64,000 nt of DNA from Planctomyces sp. SH-PL62 (lineage in GTDB: Bacteria > Planctomycetota > Planctomycetia > Isosphaerales > Isosphaeraceae): positions 4,588,001-4,652,000 of the forward strand of contig NZ_CP011273.1 in the NCBI RefSeq assembly GCF_001610895.1, read 5' to 3'. The notes beneath the pieces are model-generated. The model did not search any database. It worked only from the letters and a program-made list of their open reading frames with translations, and was not told where the DNA came from. The first letter of the stretch is position 1, and each line of letters opens with the position of its first letter. The position numbers and the translations under genes were made by a program. Below, piece by piece: positions 6,168 through 13,397 of this stretch.

Positions 6168-6983
6168 ATTCAACTCTCTCCTCCACAATTCCAGGGGGCA
6201 TCGCGGGCGTTTCGAGGTTGCGGAAGCCGCACGGCCCCCGATGGACGAACCCCAAGGAAATCGACCGACGCTCGCCCGTCGACTTCCCCAAAGCCACAAT
6301 CCGGAAGATCTTGGGGCGTGACGCCCAGGACTCTCCGGTCTGATCGTACGCGATTCCTCATTCCTACGACACGCGCCGCCCAAAGGTTTGTTCATGAACC
6401 CCGTGAAATTTCAAACATCTCGGAGGCTTCGAAATCCGTGACGATCGGCCTCCGGTCCTCCATCCCCGAGCGAGCCGCGGTATTGGCTTCGTTCGGCCTG
6501 CCCGGGCTTCCACTGGCTAGACGTAAAGGTTTACACCAACACAATTTGACGACGTTCGACACCACTCGCAATTGGCTTCGTTCGGCGCATTTGACCCTTC
6601 GGATCGCCGACCGGGGATCGCGTCGCTGTTTCCCAACCTCCCGCAGCGAAGCAGCCCGGGATCGGCTTCGTTCGACCCGACGCCGAACGGAGCCAGTCCT
6701 CCCCAAAGCTCTATCTAGTTGGATTTTGCATCGAATCAACGAGGCCGCAAATTGGCTTCGTTCGGCGCTTTTCTCTTCTCGGTTGGAAGCCAGGACTCAT
6801 CCCCGGATGCTCGTCGCGGTCTCGATCCGGAAAGGGGATCGTCCCAGCTTCACCATGGGATCCAGATCTGCAACACGCGGGCCTCCCTTCGGGTCGGCTG
6901 GAATATTTCTCGGAGCCGAAGTCGGATAGACTGGCAGGTTGAGGCGAGAGAGGGGCGATCGGGCATCGGAGGGTTGACGGACG
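6168..6983. other. 816-nt spacer between htrA and rlmN with periodic short repeats
   Basis: No gene is supported here. The stretch separates divergent htrA (minus) and rlmN (plus), so it should hold both promoters, but I see no clear hexamers. Its notable content is the four-copy repeat at 6485-6766. Open frames across it owe their length to high GC and contain the recurrent translation NWLRSA, which is the repeat read in one frame rather than evidence of a protein. Confidence 0.6.
6485..6766. repeat. Four copies of GGCTTCGTTCGGC at about 90-nt intervals
   Basis: Copies lie at 6485-6497, 6574-6586, 6664-6676 (last triplet GAC instead of GGC) and 6754-6766. Start-to-start distances are 89, 90 and 90 nt. 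Copies 2 and 4 share a longer context: CGCAA(A)TT ahead and GC(A/T)TTT behind. The intervening sequences do not resemble each other. I see no further copy in the window. Confidence 0.85.
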
Positions 6984-8021
6984 ATGGATCCCAGGAACAT
7001 CAGGCCGAGCGAGCTGGAGGATTGGGCCGCCGCGCGCGACTGCGACGCCACGGTCGTACGCAAGCTGCTCTCGGCGATCTTCCGGCGCGGCGTGCTCGAA
7101 CCCGGGCGCTGGATGGCCGAATCGCAGATCCCCAGAAGGCTGGCCGAGTCGATCGCCCCGCTCCCCCTGCCCCGGCTGACCCTCGACGGCTCGGTGGTCT
7201 CGCCGCAGGACGGGTTCCAGAAGCTCCGGTTCCGTACTGGCGAGGGGCTGGCGCTGGAGACCGTGCTGATCCCGCTGCACAAGCCGGGGGCGGTCAGCCT
7301 CTGCCTGTCGTCGCAGATCGGCTGCGCGATGGGCTGCACGTTCTGCGCGACCGCGCGGATGACGACGCGCCGGAATCTCCAGACCTGGGAGATCATCGAC
7401 CAGTTCCTCCAGGCCCGCGACCTGGTGCAGAGCCAGGGAAGGCGCGTGACCGGCGCCGTGTTCATGGGGATGGGCGAGCCGTTCCTGAATTACGACAACG
7501 TCCTGGCGGCGGCCGATCTCATGCGGTGTTCCTCCGCCGGTTCGGTGGCGGCGAAGGCGATCACCGTCAGCACGGTCGGCCTCGTCCCGGAGATCGACCG
7601 TTACACGCGCGAGGGCCATCGCTATCGACTGGCGATCAGCCTGGGGGCGGCGACCGACGCCAAGCGGAAGGAGCTGGTCCCCGTGGCCTCGCGATGGCCG
7701 GTCGCGGAAGTCGTCGCGGCGGCGCGTCGGCACGCCCTGGCCCGGCGATGCCGCGTCACCCTGGCCTACGTCTGCATCGGCGGCGTGAACGTCGGCGAGG
7801 ACGACGCGCGGGCGCTCGGCGAATTGATCGGCGACACGCCGGTCCGGGTCGACCTCATCGAGGTGACCGACCCGACCGGCCGCTACGCGCCCCCGACCGC
7901 CGAGGAGCTGCAAGGCTTCCGAGACGCCCTCACCCGGCACGTCGGCCAGCCGATCGTCCGGCGCTATTCCGGGGGCAAGGACATCCAGGCCGCGTGCGGC
8001 ACCCTGGCGGGCGTCGGCTGA
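6984..8021 (+). CDS. rlmN: Radical SAM RlmN-type rRNA/tRNA adenine C2-methyltransferase
   Basis: 345 aa. The radical-SAM cluster motif C114xxxC118xxC121 is present, as are the two RlmN cysteines: C107 in SLCLSSQ and C338 in QAACGTLAG near the C-terminus. GMGEPFLNYDNV and SLGAATDAKRKELVP are further family blocks. The family methylates C2 of A2503 in 23S rRNA (and A37 in some tRNAs) through a methyl-cysteine intermediate. It is a cytosolic, single-gene unit; the next gene begins 452 nt later. The sequence departs from E. coli RlmN in several loops, so a closely related paralogue is possible, but both essential cysteines are in place. Confidence 0.88.
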   Translation: MDPRNIRPSELEDWAAARDCDATVVRKLLSAIFRRGVLEPGRWMAESQIPRRLAESIAPLPLPRLTLDGSVVSPQDGFQKLRFRTGEGLALETVLIPLHKPGAVSLCLSSQIGCAMGCTFCATARMTTRRNLQTWEIIDQFLQARDLVQSQGRRVTGAVFMGMGEPFLNYDNVLAAADLMRCSSAGSVAAKAITVSTVGLVPEIDRYTREGHRYRLAISLGAATDAKRKELVPVASRWPVAEVVAAARRHALARRCRVTLAYVCIGGVNVGEDDARALGELIGDTPVRVDLIEVTDPTGRYAPPTAEELQGFRDALTRHVGQPIVRRYSGGKDIQAACGTLAGVG

Positions 8022-8473
8022 TCGCGAGCCGGGCCGAGCGGAGTCGTTGAAGAAGGGGCCGATCGGACGACCGGAACTCGCCCGACCGGGTCTGGCGGCC
8101 CCGAGATTCGGGGCTTACAATCGGGCCGCCTCAAGCCCTGGCGGCGCTCCCCGGTAGGATCGAGCGTACCGCGGTCGGGGGCATTGCTTTTATCCCCACG
8201 ACGCGCGGCGTCGCGGGGATATCGTCGGAGGGTGAACCGGGAGGTCAAGCCTTCGGGCGAACGACCTCCCCGCCGGCCACGGGAAACCGTGATCGGCGAT
8301 CGTCCTGCGTCGGTCAGGATACCTGCCTGGCCCCGCCGCGCGCTTCACGCTCGCGGCGACCCGGCGTCAATGATCGGCCCGCGATCGCCGACTCGTCCGG
8401 CACACGCCCTCCGACTCGTCCTCATCCCGTTCATCCGGATCGAGCGTTTTTCGAGCATCGAGAGGAGCCGGTC
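8022..8473 (+). other. 452-nt leader ahead of the SPFH-RT operon
   Basis: No open frame here has a recognisable domain. The stretch is crowded with stem-loops (see the candidate ncRNA entry), and GAGGAG at 8462-8467 is the ribosome binding site of the SPFH gene. I cannot identify promoter hexamers. None of the hairpins is followed by a T-run, so I do not read them as terminators of rlmN. Confidence 0.5.
8094..8390 (+). ncRNA. Candidate structured RNA (possible retron msr-msd) upstream of the SPFH-RT genes
   Basis: Successive perfect or near-perfect stems are visible. (1) 8094-8101 with 8123-8130, 8 bp, enclosing CCGAGATTCGG. (2) 8191-8204 with 8208-8221, 14 bp with one A-C mismatch and a GCG loop. 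(3) 8239-8246 with 8263-8270, 8 bp, enclosing a GCC-TTCG-GGC mini-hairpin. (4) CACGG-GAAA-CCGTG at 8278-8291. (5) 8294-8302 with 8382-8390, 9 bp, enclosing 8334-8340 with 8352-8358. Retrons carry a folded msr-msd RNA near their RT. The assignment is inference from position and folding; GC-rich DNA makes chance stems common, and boundaries are uncertain. Confidence 0.35.
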
Positions 8474-9196
8474 GTGTTGCGTCGCACGGTTGTCGTTCGC
8501 GAATACGAGCGGGGGCTGCTCTACGAGCACGGCCGGTTCCTCGAGATGCTGCCGCCCGGTCGTTACCGGCTCTGGAGCTGGCAAGGCCGGGAGATCTTCC
8601 GCGTCGACGTCCGCGAGGTGAGCGCGACGGTCGAGGCCCAGGAGATCCTCACCAGCGAGAAGATCGGCGTCCGGGTCACGCTGATCGCCCAGTACCGCGT
8701 CTCCGACCCGATCGCCGCCCGACATCGAGTCGGCGACTATCACTCCCAACTCTATCAAGACCTCCAGCTCACCCTGCGCGAGGCCATCACCGGGCGGACG
8801 CTGGACGAACTGTTGAACAATCGAGAGGCGCTCTCCCAGGACCTGCACGCGAGCGTCGCGCCACGGGCGAAGGCGTACGGGCTGGAGCTTACCCGGGTCG
8901 GCCTCAAGGACATGGTCCTCCCGGGTTCGGTCCGCGCCGTCTTCCTGCAGGAAGTGGAGGCCGATCTGAAGGGTCGGGCCGGCCTCACGGCCGCTCGCCA
9001 CGAGGTCGCCGCGGCGCGGGCGCGCGCCAACACGGCGCGGCTGATCCACGAGAATCCCTTGCTGCTGCGCCTCCAGGAGCTGGAAACCCTGGCGGGGCTC
9101 GCCTCGAAGTCGGGGAACGTGCTCATCATCCCCGGGCTCGACGCCCTTCTGTCCCGCACCTCGACCCCTCGCGCCGACCCCGGCGCCCCGGCATGA
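8474..9196 (+). CDS. SPFH/band-7 (slipin-like) protein linked to a retron-type RT
   Basis: 240 aa from the GTG at 8474, with GAGGAG 7 nt upstream. Residues 2-160 read as a band-7 domain: the GRxxxxLPPGRY turn (21-31), VDVREVSATVEAQEILTSE (44-62) and YRVSDPIAA. An Ala/Arg-rich helix (about 165-195) follows, as in stomatin and prohibitin relatives. These proteins form membrane-associated oligomers. Unlike most slipins there is no N-terminal hydrophobic anchor; the protein opens directly in the domain. The 3' end overlaps the reverse transcriptase start by ATGA (9193-9196), so the two are translationally coupled. Role unknown; a partner or effector for the RT is an inference from this coupling. 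Confidence 0.82.
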   Translation: MLRRTVVVREYERGLLYEHGRFLEMLPPGRYRLWSWQGREIFRVDVREVSATVEAQEILTSEKIGVRVTLIAQYRVSDPIAARHRVGDYHSQLYQDLQLTLREAITGRTLDELLNNREALSQDLHASVAPRAKAYGLELTRVGLKDMVLPGSVRAVFLQEVEADLKGRAGLTAARHEVAAARARANTARLIHENPLLLRLQELETLAGLASKSGNVLIIPGLDALLSRTSTPRADPGAPA

Positions 9197-10134
9197 ACCC
9201 CGGCCATCCCCTGAGCTACCTCGTCCCGCCCACCCTGCGTCGCCTGCTGACGCCCGCCGGGCCGTCGTCCGCCCACGCCCAGGCGCTCGCGCAGCTTCTT
9301 GGGGTGGCCGAGGACGAACTCGACGCGATCCGGCTCGGCCGCCGGTACCATTACCGACCGATCCGGGGCGCCAAGCCGGACGGGAGGGAACGGCGCATCC
9401 TGGCCCCTTCGCCGCCGCTCAAGCGACTGCAACGCCGACTCCTCGACGAGCATCTCGGGCGACTGCCGATCCATCCGTGCGCGACCGCCTTCCACCCCGG
9501 CGCGTCGCCCGTCTTCAATGCGCTCCCGCACGCGCGCGGGGCGACGATCGTCACGCTGGACCTCCGGGACTTCTTCGAAGCGACCCGAGCGTGGCGGGTC
9601 CATCGATTCTTCCGCGAGCAGGGCTGGAGCGGCGAGCCCTTGCGCGTCCTGATGCGCCTCTGCACCTTTCGCGACGGCCTGCCGCAAGGAGCGCCCACGA
9701 GTCCGTGCCTCAGCAATCTCGTGAACGTGCGGCTCGACGAGAAGCTCCGGCGCCTCGCCGCCCGGTCGCGGGGGATCTACACGCGCTACGCCGACGATCT
9801 GACCTTCTCATGGGTCGACGGCGGCATGCCCGGCGGCTTCCAGCGGGCCGTCGAGAACGTCCTGGAGCGGGAGGGATATGAGATCCAGCCTCGGAAAGTC
9901 TGGCGGGTGAGCCGGGCCCGCGATCGCCCTCGGGTGACAGGGCTGGTGATCGCCGGGGACGGGCGAGTCCGCGTCCCCTGGCGATTCCGGGTGCGTACGG
10001 TCCTGTTGCGATGGCGGTCGTGGCTCACCGGCGACCCCGTCGCCCGCGCGAGATGGCGAGGATGCCAGGGGTATCTGCGGATGGTGGACCGCAGCCGCGA
10101 GGGAGCCCGGAGCCGCCCCCGCAAGGGCGGCTAG
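9193..10134 (+). CDS. Retron-type reverse transcriptase
   Basis: 313 aa, ATG start inside the SPFH stop. RT motifs are in order: an R-I-L-A-P and LKRLQRRLL block (about 68-84), NALPH (109-113), which is the retron NAxxH signature, LDLRDFF with D123, LPQGAPTSP (163-171), YADD (199-202) with the two catalytic Asp, and VTG (248-250), the second retron signature, followed by a VPxxxRxxxRxxL thumb-like region. There is no maturase or endonuclease domain, and the length fits free-standing retron RTs (about 300-350 aa). It should copy a folded RNA into msDNA. A retron RT is well supported; the partnership with SPFH is new to me. Confidence 0.87.
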   Translation: MNPGHPLSYLVPPTLRRLLTPAGPSSAHAQALAQLLGVAEDELDAIRLGRRYHYRPIRGAKPDGRERRILAPSPPLKRLQRRLLDEHLGRLPIHPCATAFHPGASPVFNALPHARGATIVTLDLRDFFEATRAWRVHRFFREQGWSGEPLRVLMRLCTFRDGLPQGAPTSPCLSNLVNVRLDEKLRRLAARSRGIYTRYADDLTFSWVDGGMPGGFQRAVENVLEREGYEIQPRKVWRVSRARDRPRVTGLVIAGDGRVRVPWRFRVRTVLLRWRSWLTGDPVARARWRGCQGYLRMVDRSREGARSRPRKGG

Positions 10135-10159
10135 GTTCAACAACTGTTCGCCTTACGCG

Positions 10160-10177
10160 CGTCGACCCGGGTCGACG
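10160..10177. repeat. 18-bp perfect palindrome between RT and the convergent hypothetical gene
   Basis: CGTCGACCCGGGTCGACG reads the same on both strands, centred on CCCGGG. It lies between the stops of two convergent genes. It could be a short terminator stem or a protein binding site; nothing in the sequence decides. Confidence 0.5.
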
Positions 10178-10192
10178 GCCCGAGGTCCGGCG

Positions 10193-10582
10193 TCAGGACT
10201 TGCGCGAGCGGGCGCGACGGGCGGCGTCGTACCGCAGCGAGGCGACCAGCTCCAGCGTCGCCTTCGCGAAGGGCCGGAGTTCGGCCTGGCGGCCGATCCA
10301 TTCCTCGGAGTGGGGGGCTGCGGCGAAGACGTGGCGGCCGTGTCGCACCGTCCACTCGACCGCGCCCTGATCGACCAGATAGAGGAGCACGACGAGGCGG
10401 CTGTGCAGCGGCACCCGCGACCAGTACTCCGAACGACAGAGATCGTTTTCCAGGTGAAGGCCGACGAATCGAAGGGTCTCTTCGTACAGCGCGTTCAGAT
10501 GCTCATCGTTGCGATGCGAGTTGTAGTGGGCCAGGCGGCCCGTCCAGCGGCTTGAGAGTTCTCGGAGCGATGAAAGCGACAA
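10193..10582 (-). CDS. Hypothetical protein, 129 aa
   Basis: I do not recognise this family. The start is TTG at 10582. Codon use is strongly G/C at third positions throughout, which supports a real gene. The protein is rich in Arg, His and Trp, with no signal peptide, no membrane segment and no obvious metal-binding pattern. It reads as mostly helical. It faces the reverse transcriptase gene tail to tail, 58 nt away, and has its own 322-nt upstream spacer. Nothing shows that it belongs to the RT locus. Confidence 0.6.
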   Translation of the reverse strand: MSLSSLRELSSRWTGRLAHYNSHRNDEHLNALYEETLRFVGLHLENDLCRSEYWSRVPLHSRLVVLLYLVDQGAVEWTVRHGRHVFAAAPHSEEWIGRQAELRPFAKATLELVASLRYDAARRARSRKS

Positions 10583-10904
10583 CGCAGGTTTCCTCAGGGA
10601 CTCGTTCCCGGGCCGGATGGTCGACCCGATCCGTATCTTCTAGAGCATAATACTCGTCACGGCAAGTTTCAGGCCAAGCTTCGACCCCGAAATCCCCCGC
10701 CGGCTCCCCCGTAAGAGGCCCACTGGAGCCGGAACCACGGCAGGTCCGTTTCGCTTTGACAGCCGGCCGGGTATCGACTATGCTCAACCCGATCAACCAA
10801 AAAGCTTGCCGCTGGACGACTTGGGACCAGCCGGCGGGCTGTCCGCCTGACGGCTTCAGGGTGGAAGTCGTTCGATCGCTTCACCACGCGGAACCAGCCC
10901 GAAC
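10583..10904. other. Divergent spacer between hypothetical gene and MMPL transporter gene
   Basis: No gene is seen. It contains the promoter at 10756-10784 for the transporter and, near 10844-10860, a short hairpin CCTGA-CGGCT-TCAGG inside the predicted 5' leader. Confidence 0.5.
10756..10784 (+). promoter_or_regulatory. Sigma70-type promoter for the MMPL gene
   Basis: A perfect TTGACA and TATGCT are separated by exactly 17 nt. Transcription would begin near 10791, giving a leader of about 115 nt before the ATG at 10905. This is one of the best promoter matches in the window. Confidence 0.65.
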
Positions 10905-13397
10905 ATGTTTCCTTTTCTTGCCCGCCTGGTGCAGCGCCGGTCCTGGATCGTCCTCGTGCTGTGGACCGCGGCGACAGCCCTGCTCTTTCTTTACGCACCG
11001 CGCTGGGATGAAGTGACCAAGGACGACGACGTCCGGTTCTTTCCCCGGGACTACCCGAGCGTCGTCGGCCAGGACCTCCTGGAGCGAGGCTTCCCTCGGG
11101 ATGCGTCCAGCTCGCAGCTCGTCTTCGTCTTCGACCGCAGGTCGGGGCCTCTGACCCCCCAAGACCTGGCGTTCGTCGAGAAGCACGCGGCCGATTTCTA
11201 CAAGTGGAGCGAGGCCGACCCCACGCTGGGGGTCAAAAAGCTCGACACCCATCGCTCGCCGGTCATCGGCCCCAGGCTGATCGGCAAGGCGCAGGACGGC
11301 CCCGGCCAGGCCGTGCTCACGATCGCCTCGCTCAACGGCACTTACCTTTCGCGCAAGACGCGGATCGCCGTCGACAACATCCTGGAGTACCTGGCCCAGC
11401 AGCCGCCGCTGCCGGAGGGGCTGGAGCGGACGGTGACGGGGTCGGCGGTCGTCGGCCACGACATGAACACGGCCGCGAACGAGAGCATCGAGAACACGAC
11501 CACGGCGACGATCGTCCTGGTGATCGCGATCCTCCTGATCGTCTATCGGTCCCCCTTGCTGGCGATGGTCCCCCTGGTGACGATCGCGTTCTCGGTGGTC
11601 GTCTCGATGAAGGCGATCGCGGCCCTGACGGCGATCCCCTGGATCACGTTCCAGGTCATCAACATCACCCGCGTCTTCGTGGTGGTGGTCCTGTTCGGGG
11701 CCGGGACCGACTACTGCCTCTTCCTGATCGCCCGGTATCGCGAGGAGCTGGCGCGGGGACGCTCGCGGCGGGACGCGCTGCGCGAGGCGATCGAGCAGGT
11801 GGGCGGGGCGCTGGTCGCCAGCGCGGGGACGGTCATCATCGGGCTGGGGATGCTCTACTTCTCGAGCTTCGCCAAGATCCGCTACACCGGCCCGGCGATC
11901 GCGCTGAGCCTGACGATCGCGCTGCTGGCCGCGTTGACGCTGGCGCCGATGCTCCTGTCGTGGCTGGGGGGGGCGATCTTCTGGCCGTTCCGCCCGCCGC
12001 ACCACTCGCCCGGGATGAGCCGCGAGGAAGAAAGCCTGGATGAGGTGCCCATGTCGGGCTTCTGGGTGTGGGTGGCGAACCTGGTGGTCCGCCATCCGAT
12101 CTGGATCCTGGTCGTGAGCCTCTCGGCGCTGCTCCCCCTGGCCGTGATCGGCGCGAGGACGACGTCGAACTATAGCCAGCTCGCGGACCTCGCGCCGGAC
12201 CGGCCGAGCGTCGTCGGGGCGTCTCGGATCCGCCACTACTTCGCGGTCGGCGAGCTGAGCCCGACGATCGCGGTGGTCGAGAACCCCAAGCTCGATTTCC
12301 GATCGCCCGAGGGTCGCGAGAAGGTCGCCGAGGTCACGGCGAGGCTCCTGGCGGTCCCCGGCGTGGCCGAGGTCCGCTCGCTCTCGCAGCCGCTGGGGAA
12401 GCCGCCGATCCCCGAAGCCGAGATGAACTTCCTCCAGAAGATGGCCGATCGGGCCCTCCGCGCGGCGGCCGACGGCCGTTACGTCAGCATCAATCCGGTC
12501 GAGACGAGGGAGCCCGGCCAGGCCGAGGTGCCCGCGGCCCGCTCGCGCAACCACATCACGCGGTTCGACGTCGTCTTCGCGACCGACCCGTTCTCGAAGG
12601 CGAGCCTGGACTCCCTGGCCCTGGTCAACGAGACCCTGAACGCCGCCAGCCGACCCGGCGGGCCGCTCCAGGGCTGCACCGGCATCGGCCTCGCCGGCTC
12701 GACGTCGGCGGTGAACGACCTGATGCGGGTCACGACGGGCGACGAGCGCCGGATGTATTTCCTGGTCACGTTCGGGGTCTTCATCATCCTCGTCGCCCTG
12801 CTCCGTCGGCCGGGGACCTGCCTGTACCTCATCCTGACGGTCGTGCTGGGCTACCTGGCGTCGCTGGGGGTCACGGAGCTGGTCTTCAGCAGCATCCACC
12901 AGGGGACCGAGCCGTGGGGCGGGCTCGACTGGACCGTCGGCTTCTTCCTGTTCGTGATCCTGGTGGCCGTGGGGGAGGATTACAACATCCTGCTCATGGC
13001 CCGGGTCATCGAGGAGGAGGCCAAGCACGGGGTCGTCGAGGGGACCCGCCGCGCCGTGGCGCATACGGGGGGCATCATCAGCTCGTGCGGGCTCATCATG
13101 GCCGGCACGTTCGGCTCGATGCTGACCGGCAGCCTCACCTCGCTCAAGGAGCTGGGTTTCTCCCTCGGGCTGGGGATCTTGCTGGACACGTTCCTGGTGC
13201 GGCCGATCCTCGTCCCGGCCTTCGTGGTCGTGGCGGATCGGCTCTGGAACGATGTGGGCCCGACCAGAGCGGAACGCGCCCGGGAGCCCAAGCCCCTCGA
13301 TCCCTCGGCGAACGGCCAGCCCGCCGGTGCCGAGCCGGACAAGTCCCTCGTGCCGGACGCGGTCGATTCGTGCCTGGGCGAGTTCTACGAGGACTGA
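10905..13397 (+). CDS. MMPL/RND-superfamily transporter
   Basis: 830 aa. A signal-anchor helix (about 12-31) is followed by a periplasmic domain, then a group of membrane helices with GAGTDYCLFL near 265. A second periplasmic domain and a second helix group with AVGEDYNILLMAR near 690 repeat the pattern. This duplicated six-plus-six arrangement with a G-x-x-x-DY/EDY motif in helix 4 is the MMPL/RND design, a proton-driven exporter usually of lipids or hydrophobic compounds. The substrate is unknown. It is monocistronic in appearance, with a near-consensus promoter upstream. Its 3' end overlaps the opposing zinc-ribbon gene by 13 nt. Confidence 0.88.
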   Translation: MFPFLARLVQRRSWIVLVLWTAATALLFLYAPRWDEVTKDDDVRFFPRDYPSVVGQDLLERGFPRDASSSQLVFVFDRRSGPLTPQDLAFVEKHAADFYKWSEADPTLGVKKLDTHRSPVIGPRLIGKAQDGPGQAVLTIASLNGTYLSRKTRIAVDNILEYLAQQPPLPEGLERTVTGSAVVGHDMNTAANESIENTTTATIVLVIAILLIVYRSPLLAMVPLVTIAFSVVVSMKAIAALTAIPWITFQVINITRVFVVVVLFGAGTDYCLFLIARYREELARGRSRRDALREAIEQVGGALVASAGTVIIGLGMLYFSSFAKIRYTGPAIALSLTIALLAALTLAPMLLSWLGGAIFWPFRPPHHSPGMSREEESLDEVPMSGFWVWVANLVVRHPIWILVVSLSALLPLAVIGARTTSNYSQLADLAPDRPSVVGASRIRHYFAVGELSPTIAVVENPKLDFRSPEGREKVAEVTARLLAVPGVAEVRSLSQPLGKPPIPEAEMNFLQKMADRALRAAADGRYVSINPVETREPGQAEVPAARSRNHITRFDVVFATDPFSKASLDSLALVNETLNAASRPGGPLQGCTGIGLAGSTSAVNDLMRVTTGDERRMYFLVTFGVFIILVALLRRPGTCLYLILTVVLGYLASLGVTELVFSSIHQGTEPWGGLDWTVGFFLFVILVAVGEDYNILLMARVIEEEAKHGVVEGTRRAVAHTGGIISSCGLIMAGTFGSMLTGSLTSLKELGFSLGLGILLDTFLVRPILVPAFVVVADRLWNDVGPTRAERAREPKPLDPSANGQPAGAEPDKSLVPDAVDSCLGEFYED

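What the first reader, a model, noticed from the sequence alone, without database searches (positions are those of the whole stretch)
8094..8390. Stem-loop-rich leader as a candidate msr-msd RNA
Five successive stems of 5-14 bp, some with UUCG or GAAA loops, fill a 300-nt stretch directly upstream of the SPFH-RT pair and no hairpin ends in a T-run. Retron RTs use a folded RNA encoded next to them as primer and template. The 14-bp stem at 8191-8221 would be the natural msd hairpin candidate.
Basis: partly seen in the sequence, partly recalled or inferred. Interest (0 to 1): 0.62.

Follow-up and report, generated by a model that had tools for sequence, protein, structure and literature searches.

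The report
Conserved RNA beside SPFH-reverse transcriptase pair
The stretch in front of this membrane-scaffold-like gene and its reverse transcriptase encodes a real, conserved, folded RNA found in distantly related bacteria with the same gene pair; the enzyme is of the retron kind but the RNA is not built like a normal retron RNA, so it looks like a new variety of RNA-plus-reverse-transcriptase system.

Summary
The leader is real, conserved RNA. A covariance model trained only on other-genus loci finds the window's leader as the sole significant hit in its genome; on the alignment fitted to that model, 68 of 81 pairs show two-sided changes. Leader, SPFH and RT are missing together at the same site in two congeners. 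The RT is of retron lineage; SPFH-linked RTs form one clade. But a canonical msr is not met: neighbouring RTs without SPFH carry a textbook msr (11 of 11 held-out loci, 93) that no SPFH locus credibly shows, and P2 lies outside the only a1/a2-like helix. So 'structured RNA partner of a retron-type RT' is supported; 'msr-msd with P2 as msd' is not. Most likely a new retron-like variant: RT, remodelled ncRNA, stomatin-like protein. No DNA product or defence is shown.

The parts
8092..8121 (+). putative promoter: CTGGCG (8092-8097), 18 nt, TACAAT (8116-8121)
   Evidence: Best-scoring -10-like box ends 12-19 nt before P0 in 15 of 16 leaders (in 9 of 16 the paired -35 begins TTG). No shuffled control was run for this. 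Only 8 of 12 consensus matches in the window; the strict scan finds none.
8129..8417 (+). conserved structured ncRNA (approximate, inferred ends)
   Evidence: R1, built without this genus, hits 8130-8404 + at E 9.9e-11 and is the only significant hit in the whole genome, E 5.3e-9, next 1.63. G-U cells 110 against A-C cells 33 mark the + strand.
8135..8182 (+). P1 helix 8135-8139 / 8178-8182
   Evidence: Pairs mapped; 4 of 5 pairs with two-sided changes.
8141..8172 (+). P0 hairpin, invariant GCGGC ... GUnCCGC
   Evidence: Found in 15 of 15 leaders trimmed (used there as the anchor); 6 of 11 pairs with two-sided changes, 5 never vary.
8191..8221 (+).
   Evidence: 11 of 11 modelled pairs have two-sided changes; sequence changes (62% identity over 8 related pairs of rows) while pairing is kept.
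8224..8234 (+). P3 5' strand, long-range helix
   Evidence: 11 bp with 8405-8415; other sequence but still paired in the other leaders (weakest in L244).
8239..8270 (+). Pa hairpin with an inner UUCG loop
   Evidence: Fold; equivalent hairpin in other leaders.
8272..8297 (+). extra hairpin with GAAA-type loop, seen in the four Paludisphaera-type leaders, L239 and L242
   Evidence: Alignments, by eye.
8294..8390 (+). lower stem of the P4 domain, 8294-8302 / 8382-8390
   Evidence: Sequence; modelled part 4 of 4 pairs with two-sided changes (helix 7).
8306..8378 (+). core: UGC (8306-8308), P4 8309-8316 / 8371-8378, GGAUACC (8317-8323), P5 (8324-8366), UCAA (8367-8370)
   Evidence: UGC, GAUACC, UnAA invariant in the 14 full-length aligned rows; P4 with neighbouring pairs 97% paired, 8 of 11 with two-sided changes (helix 8).
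8405..8415 (+). P3 3' strand
8474..9196 (+). SPFH/Band_7 protein, 240 aa, GTG start, stomatin/slipin-like, apparently without stomatin's N-terminal membrane hairpin (stomatin topology recalled)
   Evidence: PF01145 2.5e-25; profile position 7 aligns to residue 32-76 of the near-full-length stomatin chains, depending on construct, E about 1e-33.
9193..10134 (+). retron-lineage reverse transcriptase, 313 aa, start overlaps the SPFH stop by 4 bases
   Evidence: RVT_1; NALPH, YADD, VTG in the sequence; best PDB matches are retron RTs.

Best explanation
The leader encodes a trans-acting structured RNA that is the dedicated partner of the retron-lineage RT downstream, in a three-part cassette: ncRNA, stomatin-like SPFH protein, RT. 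Shown: the RNA is conserved by covariation on the + strand, was found only with this gene pair in what was searched, and comes and goes with it as one unit; the RT belongs to the retron lineage. Inferred: a promoter just upstream starts one transcript at P1; the RT binds the RNA through its invariant elements (P0 and the UGC/GAUACC/UnAA core) and copies part of it into DNA, the variable hairpins (P2 or P5) being candidate templates; the RNA or RNA-DNA complex controls assembly of the SPFH protein, by analogy with known retrons in which RT, ncRNA and DNA hold an effector in check until a phage disturbs them. The RNA differs in plan from the canonical msr-msd of the neighbouring retrons, so priming site and template are unknown.
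For: RNA reality: a model built from 8 other-genus leaders hits 7 of the 8 SPFH-RT loci it was not trained on, the window at E 9.9e-11. On the alignment fitted to it, 91.0% of cells paired against 35-43% when slid; 68 of 81 pairs with two-sided changes against 34-37 slid; covariation score 0.561 against 0.07-0.11; 0 of 500 shuffles as high. De novo RNAalifold on the 8 training leaders: 52 of 81 pairs with two-sided changes. Strand: 110 G-U against 33 A-C cells. Linkage: RT downstream on the same strand in 16 of 16 close SPFH relatives; no match below E 1.9 at 66 RT loci without SPFH; the 9 genomes that R1 hits among 397 of the class are each hit in front of an SPFH-RT pair, but 8 of these 9 are the training loci themselves. 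Unit: leader, SPFH and RT all missing between RlmN and the next ORF in two congeners, about 91 bp left in G005. RT lineage: retron RTs are the best profile (2e-43) and fold matches. SPFH-RTs form one clade, SH-aLRT 98, among 156 RTs (quick search). No terminator and a 4-base SPFH/RT overlap fit one transcript.
Against: No expression, binding, cDNA or defence data exist here. The canonical msr was not found and no consistent a1/a2 pairing of the RNA ends was seen, so direct evidence that the RNA is primer or template is missing. Of 10 flanking ORFs from 7 loci scanned, six match a Pfam family (NamZ twice, NYN, DEAD helicase, ketoacyl synthase, DUF6798) and four none; of 10 scanned against PADLOC only the helicase matches, in helicase families; so no defence island was seen. 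L247, a sixteenth SPFH-RT locus, gives no R1 hit at E <= 10 and shows only a P0-like hairpin by eye; L115 is hit in two pieces only. The class-wide R1 search missed five genomes whose leaders direct scanning hits, so it says little about orphan copies. The window's promoter is weak. R1 placed the window's P3 strands at other positions than the 11-bp helix found directly. The fitted alignment leans towards the structure.
Confidence: 0.7

Rival explanations
1. One reading: a canonical retron msr-msd, with P2 (8191-8221) as the msd hairpin, primed by 2'-OH branching.
For: RT of retron lineage with NAXXH, YADD and VTG; leader upstream in the same orientation; P2 is a nearly perfect hairpin whose sequence changes while pairing is kept, as expected of a templated msd.
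Against: A canonical msr model finds nothing credible at 16 SPFH-RT loci but 11 of 11 held-out neighbour loci. P2 is outside the only long-range helix; no consistent pairing of the RNA ends was found (by eye). Neighbour RNAs fold in the plan a1-SL1-SL2-SL3-msd-a2, which this RNA does not match.
Confidence: 0.12
2. A retron RNA whose canonical part is the P3-closed 3' domain (P3 = a1/a2, Pa = msr stem, P4-P5 = msd), with P1-P0-P2 as an added 5' module.
For: P3 is an a1/a2-like helix that closes a hairpin and a long terminal stem in the canonical order.
Against: Some of the best conserved bases of the RNA (UGC, GAUACC, UnAA) would lie in the msd, which in retrons varies most (recalled); no conserved G follows P3's 5' strand by eye; no 8-bp UUU-loop stem seen in the 3' domain.
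Confidence: 0.2
3. A cis-acting leader (riboswitch- or protein-binding-type regulator) of the SPFH-RT operon that the RT does not use as substrate.
For: Lies in the 5' leader of the operon; internal loops with invariant bases resemble binding pockets; co-absence with the operon is also expected.
Against: No terminator. In the window the structure ends 58 nt before the SPFH start; in 14 of 15 leaders it ends 45-105 nt before the first SPFH profile position (230 nt in L244), though the start codon can be nearer than that (about 26 nt in L117, by eye). Retron-lineage RTs work with a neighbouring ncRNA, the neighbour RTs have one, and no other RNA was found here.
Confidence: 0.13
4. Chance hairpins of a G+C-rich intergenic region.
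Against: Covariation across genera, families and one Chloroflexi MAG, and the blind model hit.
Confidence: 0.01

Closest known systems
Retrons (RT + msr-msd ncRNA + effector)
   Same: RT of the retron lineage with NAXXH/YADD/VTG, conserved ncRNA upstream, accessory gene in the same operon.
   Different: RNA is of another plan, no canonical msr detectable; partner is a stomatin-like SPFH protein, which matches no family of PADLOC-DB at E <= 1; DNA product unknown.
Canonical retrons of the neighbouring RTs (e.g. L041, L213, L197)
   Same: Nearest RT relatives (with the SPFH clade in one set of 47, support 99); ncRNA upstream of the RT.
   Different: They have SL1, SL2 (mostly UUU loop), a1/a2 and an msd hairpin and no SPFH match in the DNA held, often only 1.5 kb each side.
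DRT2, DRT9 and similar RT-ncRNA defence systems
   Same: RT working with a neighbouring structured ncRNA (from listings and abstract beginnings).
   Different: RT scores far better against retron RTs (2e-43) than against Drt2 (3.6e-9).
Stomatin/slipin/HflK SPFH proteins
   Same: Band_7 domain; profile match to stomatin.
   Different: Begins about where stomatin's membrane hairpin ends (topology recalled), so probably no membrane anchor of its own; sits in an operon with an RT.

Membership tests
Retron | RT of the retron lineage | tested here: met
   PDB profile 2e-43 to Ec86 RT, group II and DRT RTs at about 1e-9; Foldseek ranks 1-18 all retron RTs, model mean pLDDT 75.
Retron | NAXXH in region X, YADD, VTG in region Y (definitions: passages of PMC4244168 and PMC6868368) | tested here: met
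   NALPH, YADD, VTG in the window RT; substitutions in the six relatives aligned, such as HAxxH or HVxxH, YGDD or YCDD, ITG or IVG.
Retron | Structured ncRNA adjacent to the RT | tested here: met
   15 of 16 loci by model R1, 8 of them its training set; covariation.
Retron | Canonical msr (SL1, 8-bp SL2 with UUU loop) as in the neighbouring RTs | tested here: not met
   R2: no match at 15 of 16 SPFH-RT loci at E <= 10, and in L245 one partial match, E 0.41, about 3 kb from the leader; 11 of 11 held-out neighbour loci matched, E 2.3e-13 to 0.0026, one of them (L037) on the strand opposite the RT; window 7900-11000 with filters off, best E 0.47.
Retron | a1/a2 inverted repeat pairing the two ends of the ncRNA | tested here: inconclusive
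   The 5' end pairs locally (P1); P3 is a1/a2-like but closes only the 3' domain.
Retron | msDNA primed from a 2'-OH of a guanosine | not testable with these tools
   Needs biochemistry.
Retron | Effector that defends against phage | not testable with these tools
   The flanking ORFs scanned give no defence island.
Rfam families | Match to a described RNA family | tested here: not met
   No match in the leader at E <= 5 (window; loci L117, L240, L034, L242).
SPFH/Band_7 proteins | SPFH domain above the Pfam cut-off | tested here: met
   PF01145, 90 bits against a cut-off of 23.6.

The most novel reading that the evidence does not exclude
A retron-lineage RT has given up the msr-msd for an unrelated class of structured RNA, and so primes and copies in a new way; its product controls a stomatin-like ring or cage, making a nucleic-acid-gated membrane scaffold.
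Probability: 0.35. Interest if true: 0.85.

Novelty: new variant of a known kind. Interest (0 to 1): 0.7.

Why it matters
Retron RTs are thought to depend on a stereotyped msr-msd RNA. Here a clade that groups with canonical retrons has a different, strongly conserved RNA and a partner type that I found in no retron description in the open library (two papers hold both words; in the one I searched, PMC7159879, they are not joined; the other was seen in the listing only). It makes directly testable how an RT and its RNA co-evolve, and whether SPFH proteins can be effectors. Retron RNAs also underlie genome-editing tools, so a new RNA plan with its own RT is of practical interest.

Tried and rejected
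Folding energy as the main evidence: rejected, since 7 of 160 tiles fold as well. Rfam: no match. Viral contigs for SPFH: no relatives; for the RT: 66 loci, none with the SPFH profile. Phages: 48 records match the RT, all under 60% identity. Plasmids: SPFH matches all under 60% identity, none covering 80% of the query. Alternative pairing of the P1 5' strand with bases after P2 (an a1/a2 substitute): present in a few leaders by eye, not consistent. Search of the neighbour leaders for GAUACC or P0: none conserved. SPFH structure model too poor to use (mean pLDDT 61.9). The class-wide R1 search ran with stricter filters and missed five genomes (three congeners and those of L239 and L242) that direct scanning hits; 8 of its 9 hits are training loci. 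Automatic a1/a2 finding in the neighbours was right in some rows and spurious in others; I rely on the folds of five of them, four of which show a1/a2 closed. Of the 11 held-out neighbour loci, L219 is a close relative of the trained L119.

Not tested: tree with careful bootstraps (quick search only; the exact order between the SPFH clade and the 31 neighbours has support 70 only); which sub-region co-varies with RT region Y; a shuffled control for the promoter boxes.

Full report
Check of the observation. The + strand of 8094-8390 folds better than all 200 dinucleotide shuffles (z -3.57), and the reverse strand nearly as well (z -2.97). This alone proves little, because 7 of 160 equal-length tiles of the window reach the z recomputed for that stretch, -3.2; the conserved element 8130-8417 reaches -5.8, below every tile. 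No terminator-like site was found in 8000-8500.

Setting. The window lies in a planctomycete; its close relative L033 is recorded as Paludisphaera soli. RlmN (6984-8021), the leader, SPFH (8474-9196) and RT (9193-10134) are followed by a small ORF and an MMPL-type transporter gene (named from memory; no family search was run on it). The same order holds in three congeners (in one of them an extra gene lies between RlmN and the leader). In two other congeners, G005 and G002, RlmN and the small ORF are neighbours (about 91 bp and 900 bp apart) with no blastn or tblastn trace of leader, SPFH or RT between them. The leader therefore belongs to the cassette and not to RlmN.

How common. With an SPFH profile at E <= 1e-60, 14 of 397 genomes of the class match, 10 of them also seen in a search of 95 genomes of one other family. 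Two more came from RT searches: a Chloroflexi MAG (L034) and a genome of the same phylum but outside the class (G168 = L247). All 16 SPFH genes have the RT downstream on the same strand. The SPFH-linked RTs are one clade with SH-aLRT 98 among 156 RTs, quick search.

The RNA. Fifteen of the 16 leaders share one plan. R1 was built from the eight Gemmata-type leaders only; RNAalifold without guidance gave 81 pairs, 52 with two-sided changes. R1 then found 7 of the 8 SPFH-RT loci it had not seen, including the window at 8130-8404, E 9.9e-11; L115 was hit in two pieces and L247 was missed. In the window's whole genome it is the only significant hit, E 5.3e-9, the next being 1.6. Among 397 class genomes R1 hit 9, each in front of an SPFH-RT pair, but 8 of these are its training loci and five genomes with real leaders were missed under the stricter filters. 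Among 67 other loci, 66 with RTs lacking SPFH plus L196, the short copy of the L247 locus, there was no match below E 1.9. On the 16-row alignment fitted to R1, 91.0% of cells pair against 35-43% with partners slid, and 68 of 81 pairs show two-sided changes against 34-37. This alignment leans to the structure; the blind hit does not. G-U cells outnumber A-C cells 110 to 33, so the + strand is the RNA. Bases invariant in 14 full-length rows include GCGGC/GUnCCGC, UGC, GAUACC, UnAA and CC. P2, P3, Pa and P5 change more in sequence (54-62%, Pa 38%) while pairing is kept; P0 and the core are 86-97% identical in the same eight pairs of rows (some low figures reflect misaligned P3/Pa in the window's genus). 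A -10-like box ends 12-19 nt before P0 in the best candidate of 15 of 16 leaders (no shuffled control), which would put the 5' end near P1; the window's own promoter is too weak for the strict scan.

The enzyme. The RT has NALPH, YADD and VTG. PMC4244168 and PMC6868368 (passages read) give NAXXH and VTG as retron-specific. Retron RTs lead both the PDB profile search and the fold search. PADLOC's best family is RT_XIII, with several others close, so no type is assigned.

The test for a canonical msr-msd. The smallest well supported set that holds the SPFH clade and other RTs (47 rows, support 99) has 31 other RTs. None shows SPFH in the DNA held. Upstream of them lie RNAs with SL1, an 8-bp SL2 with mostly UUU loop and, in folds of five, SL3, an msd-like hairpin and, in four of the five, a closed a1/a2. 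PMC6868368 describes an 8-bp stem with a UUU loop as bound by part of RT-Eco1. R2, built from 20 of the 31 loci, finds all 11 others, E 2.3e-13 to 0.0026, one (L037) on the strand opposite the RT, and nothing credible at the 16 SPFH-RT loci or in 7900-11000 with filters off. So the lineage is a retron lineage, but its RNA is another. Whether P3 is a much changed a1/a2 cannot be decided here.

Mechanism. Shown: conserved RNA, linked to SPFH-RT, retron-type RT. Inferred: RNA binding by the RT, copying of part of it, and control of the SPFH protein by the complex. The SPFH protein aligns to stomatin from about the end of stomatin's membrane hairpin (topology recalled), so it may be a soluble scaffold recruited or released on a signal. 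Defence is a guess by analogy; the flanking ORFs scanned show no defence island, though the patchy distribution would fit.

Literature. Of the open library, two papers hold both 'retron' and 'SPFH'; in PMC7159879 the SPFH word is only in a reference title, and PMC4936722 was seen in the listing only. PMC12548924, PMC8867640 and PMC12405507 were seen as passages. The listings (no paper) showed no title or abstract beginning that describes such a system. Subscription papers were not searched.

Noticed in passing
L041, L048, L197, L198, L202, L213, L035 and other neighbour loci, about 190-600 nt upstream of the RT: Canonical-looking retron ncRNAs, mostly in planctomycete genomes; in the seven loci given to Rfam none matched a retron family at E <= 5.
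   Followed up: partly
L201 and L202 upstream regions: Two copies of the canonical retron ncRNA core in tandem before one RT.
   Followed up: no
L037 205-299, minus strand: The canonical msr match lies on the strand opposite the RT.
   Followed up: no
L247 (G168): AT-rich SPFH-RT locus whose SPFH ORF holds two SPFH domain matches; only a P0-like hairpin seen by eye upstream.
   Followed up: partly
L116, G000:C1:5996978-5997697: A second retron-like RT in the same genome, inside a 1157-codon open frame, 43% identical to the window RT.
   Followed up: no
L115 about 6780-8280, minus strand: In congener G004 an extra gene of about 1.5 kb, by eye, lies between RlmN and the leader.
   Followed up: no
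window 10193-10582, minus strand: A 129-aa ORF conserved in all five congeners examined but matching no Pfam or NCBIfam family.
   Followed up: no
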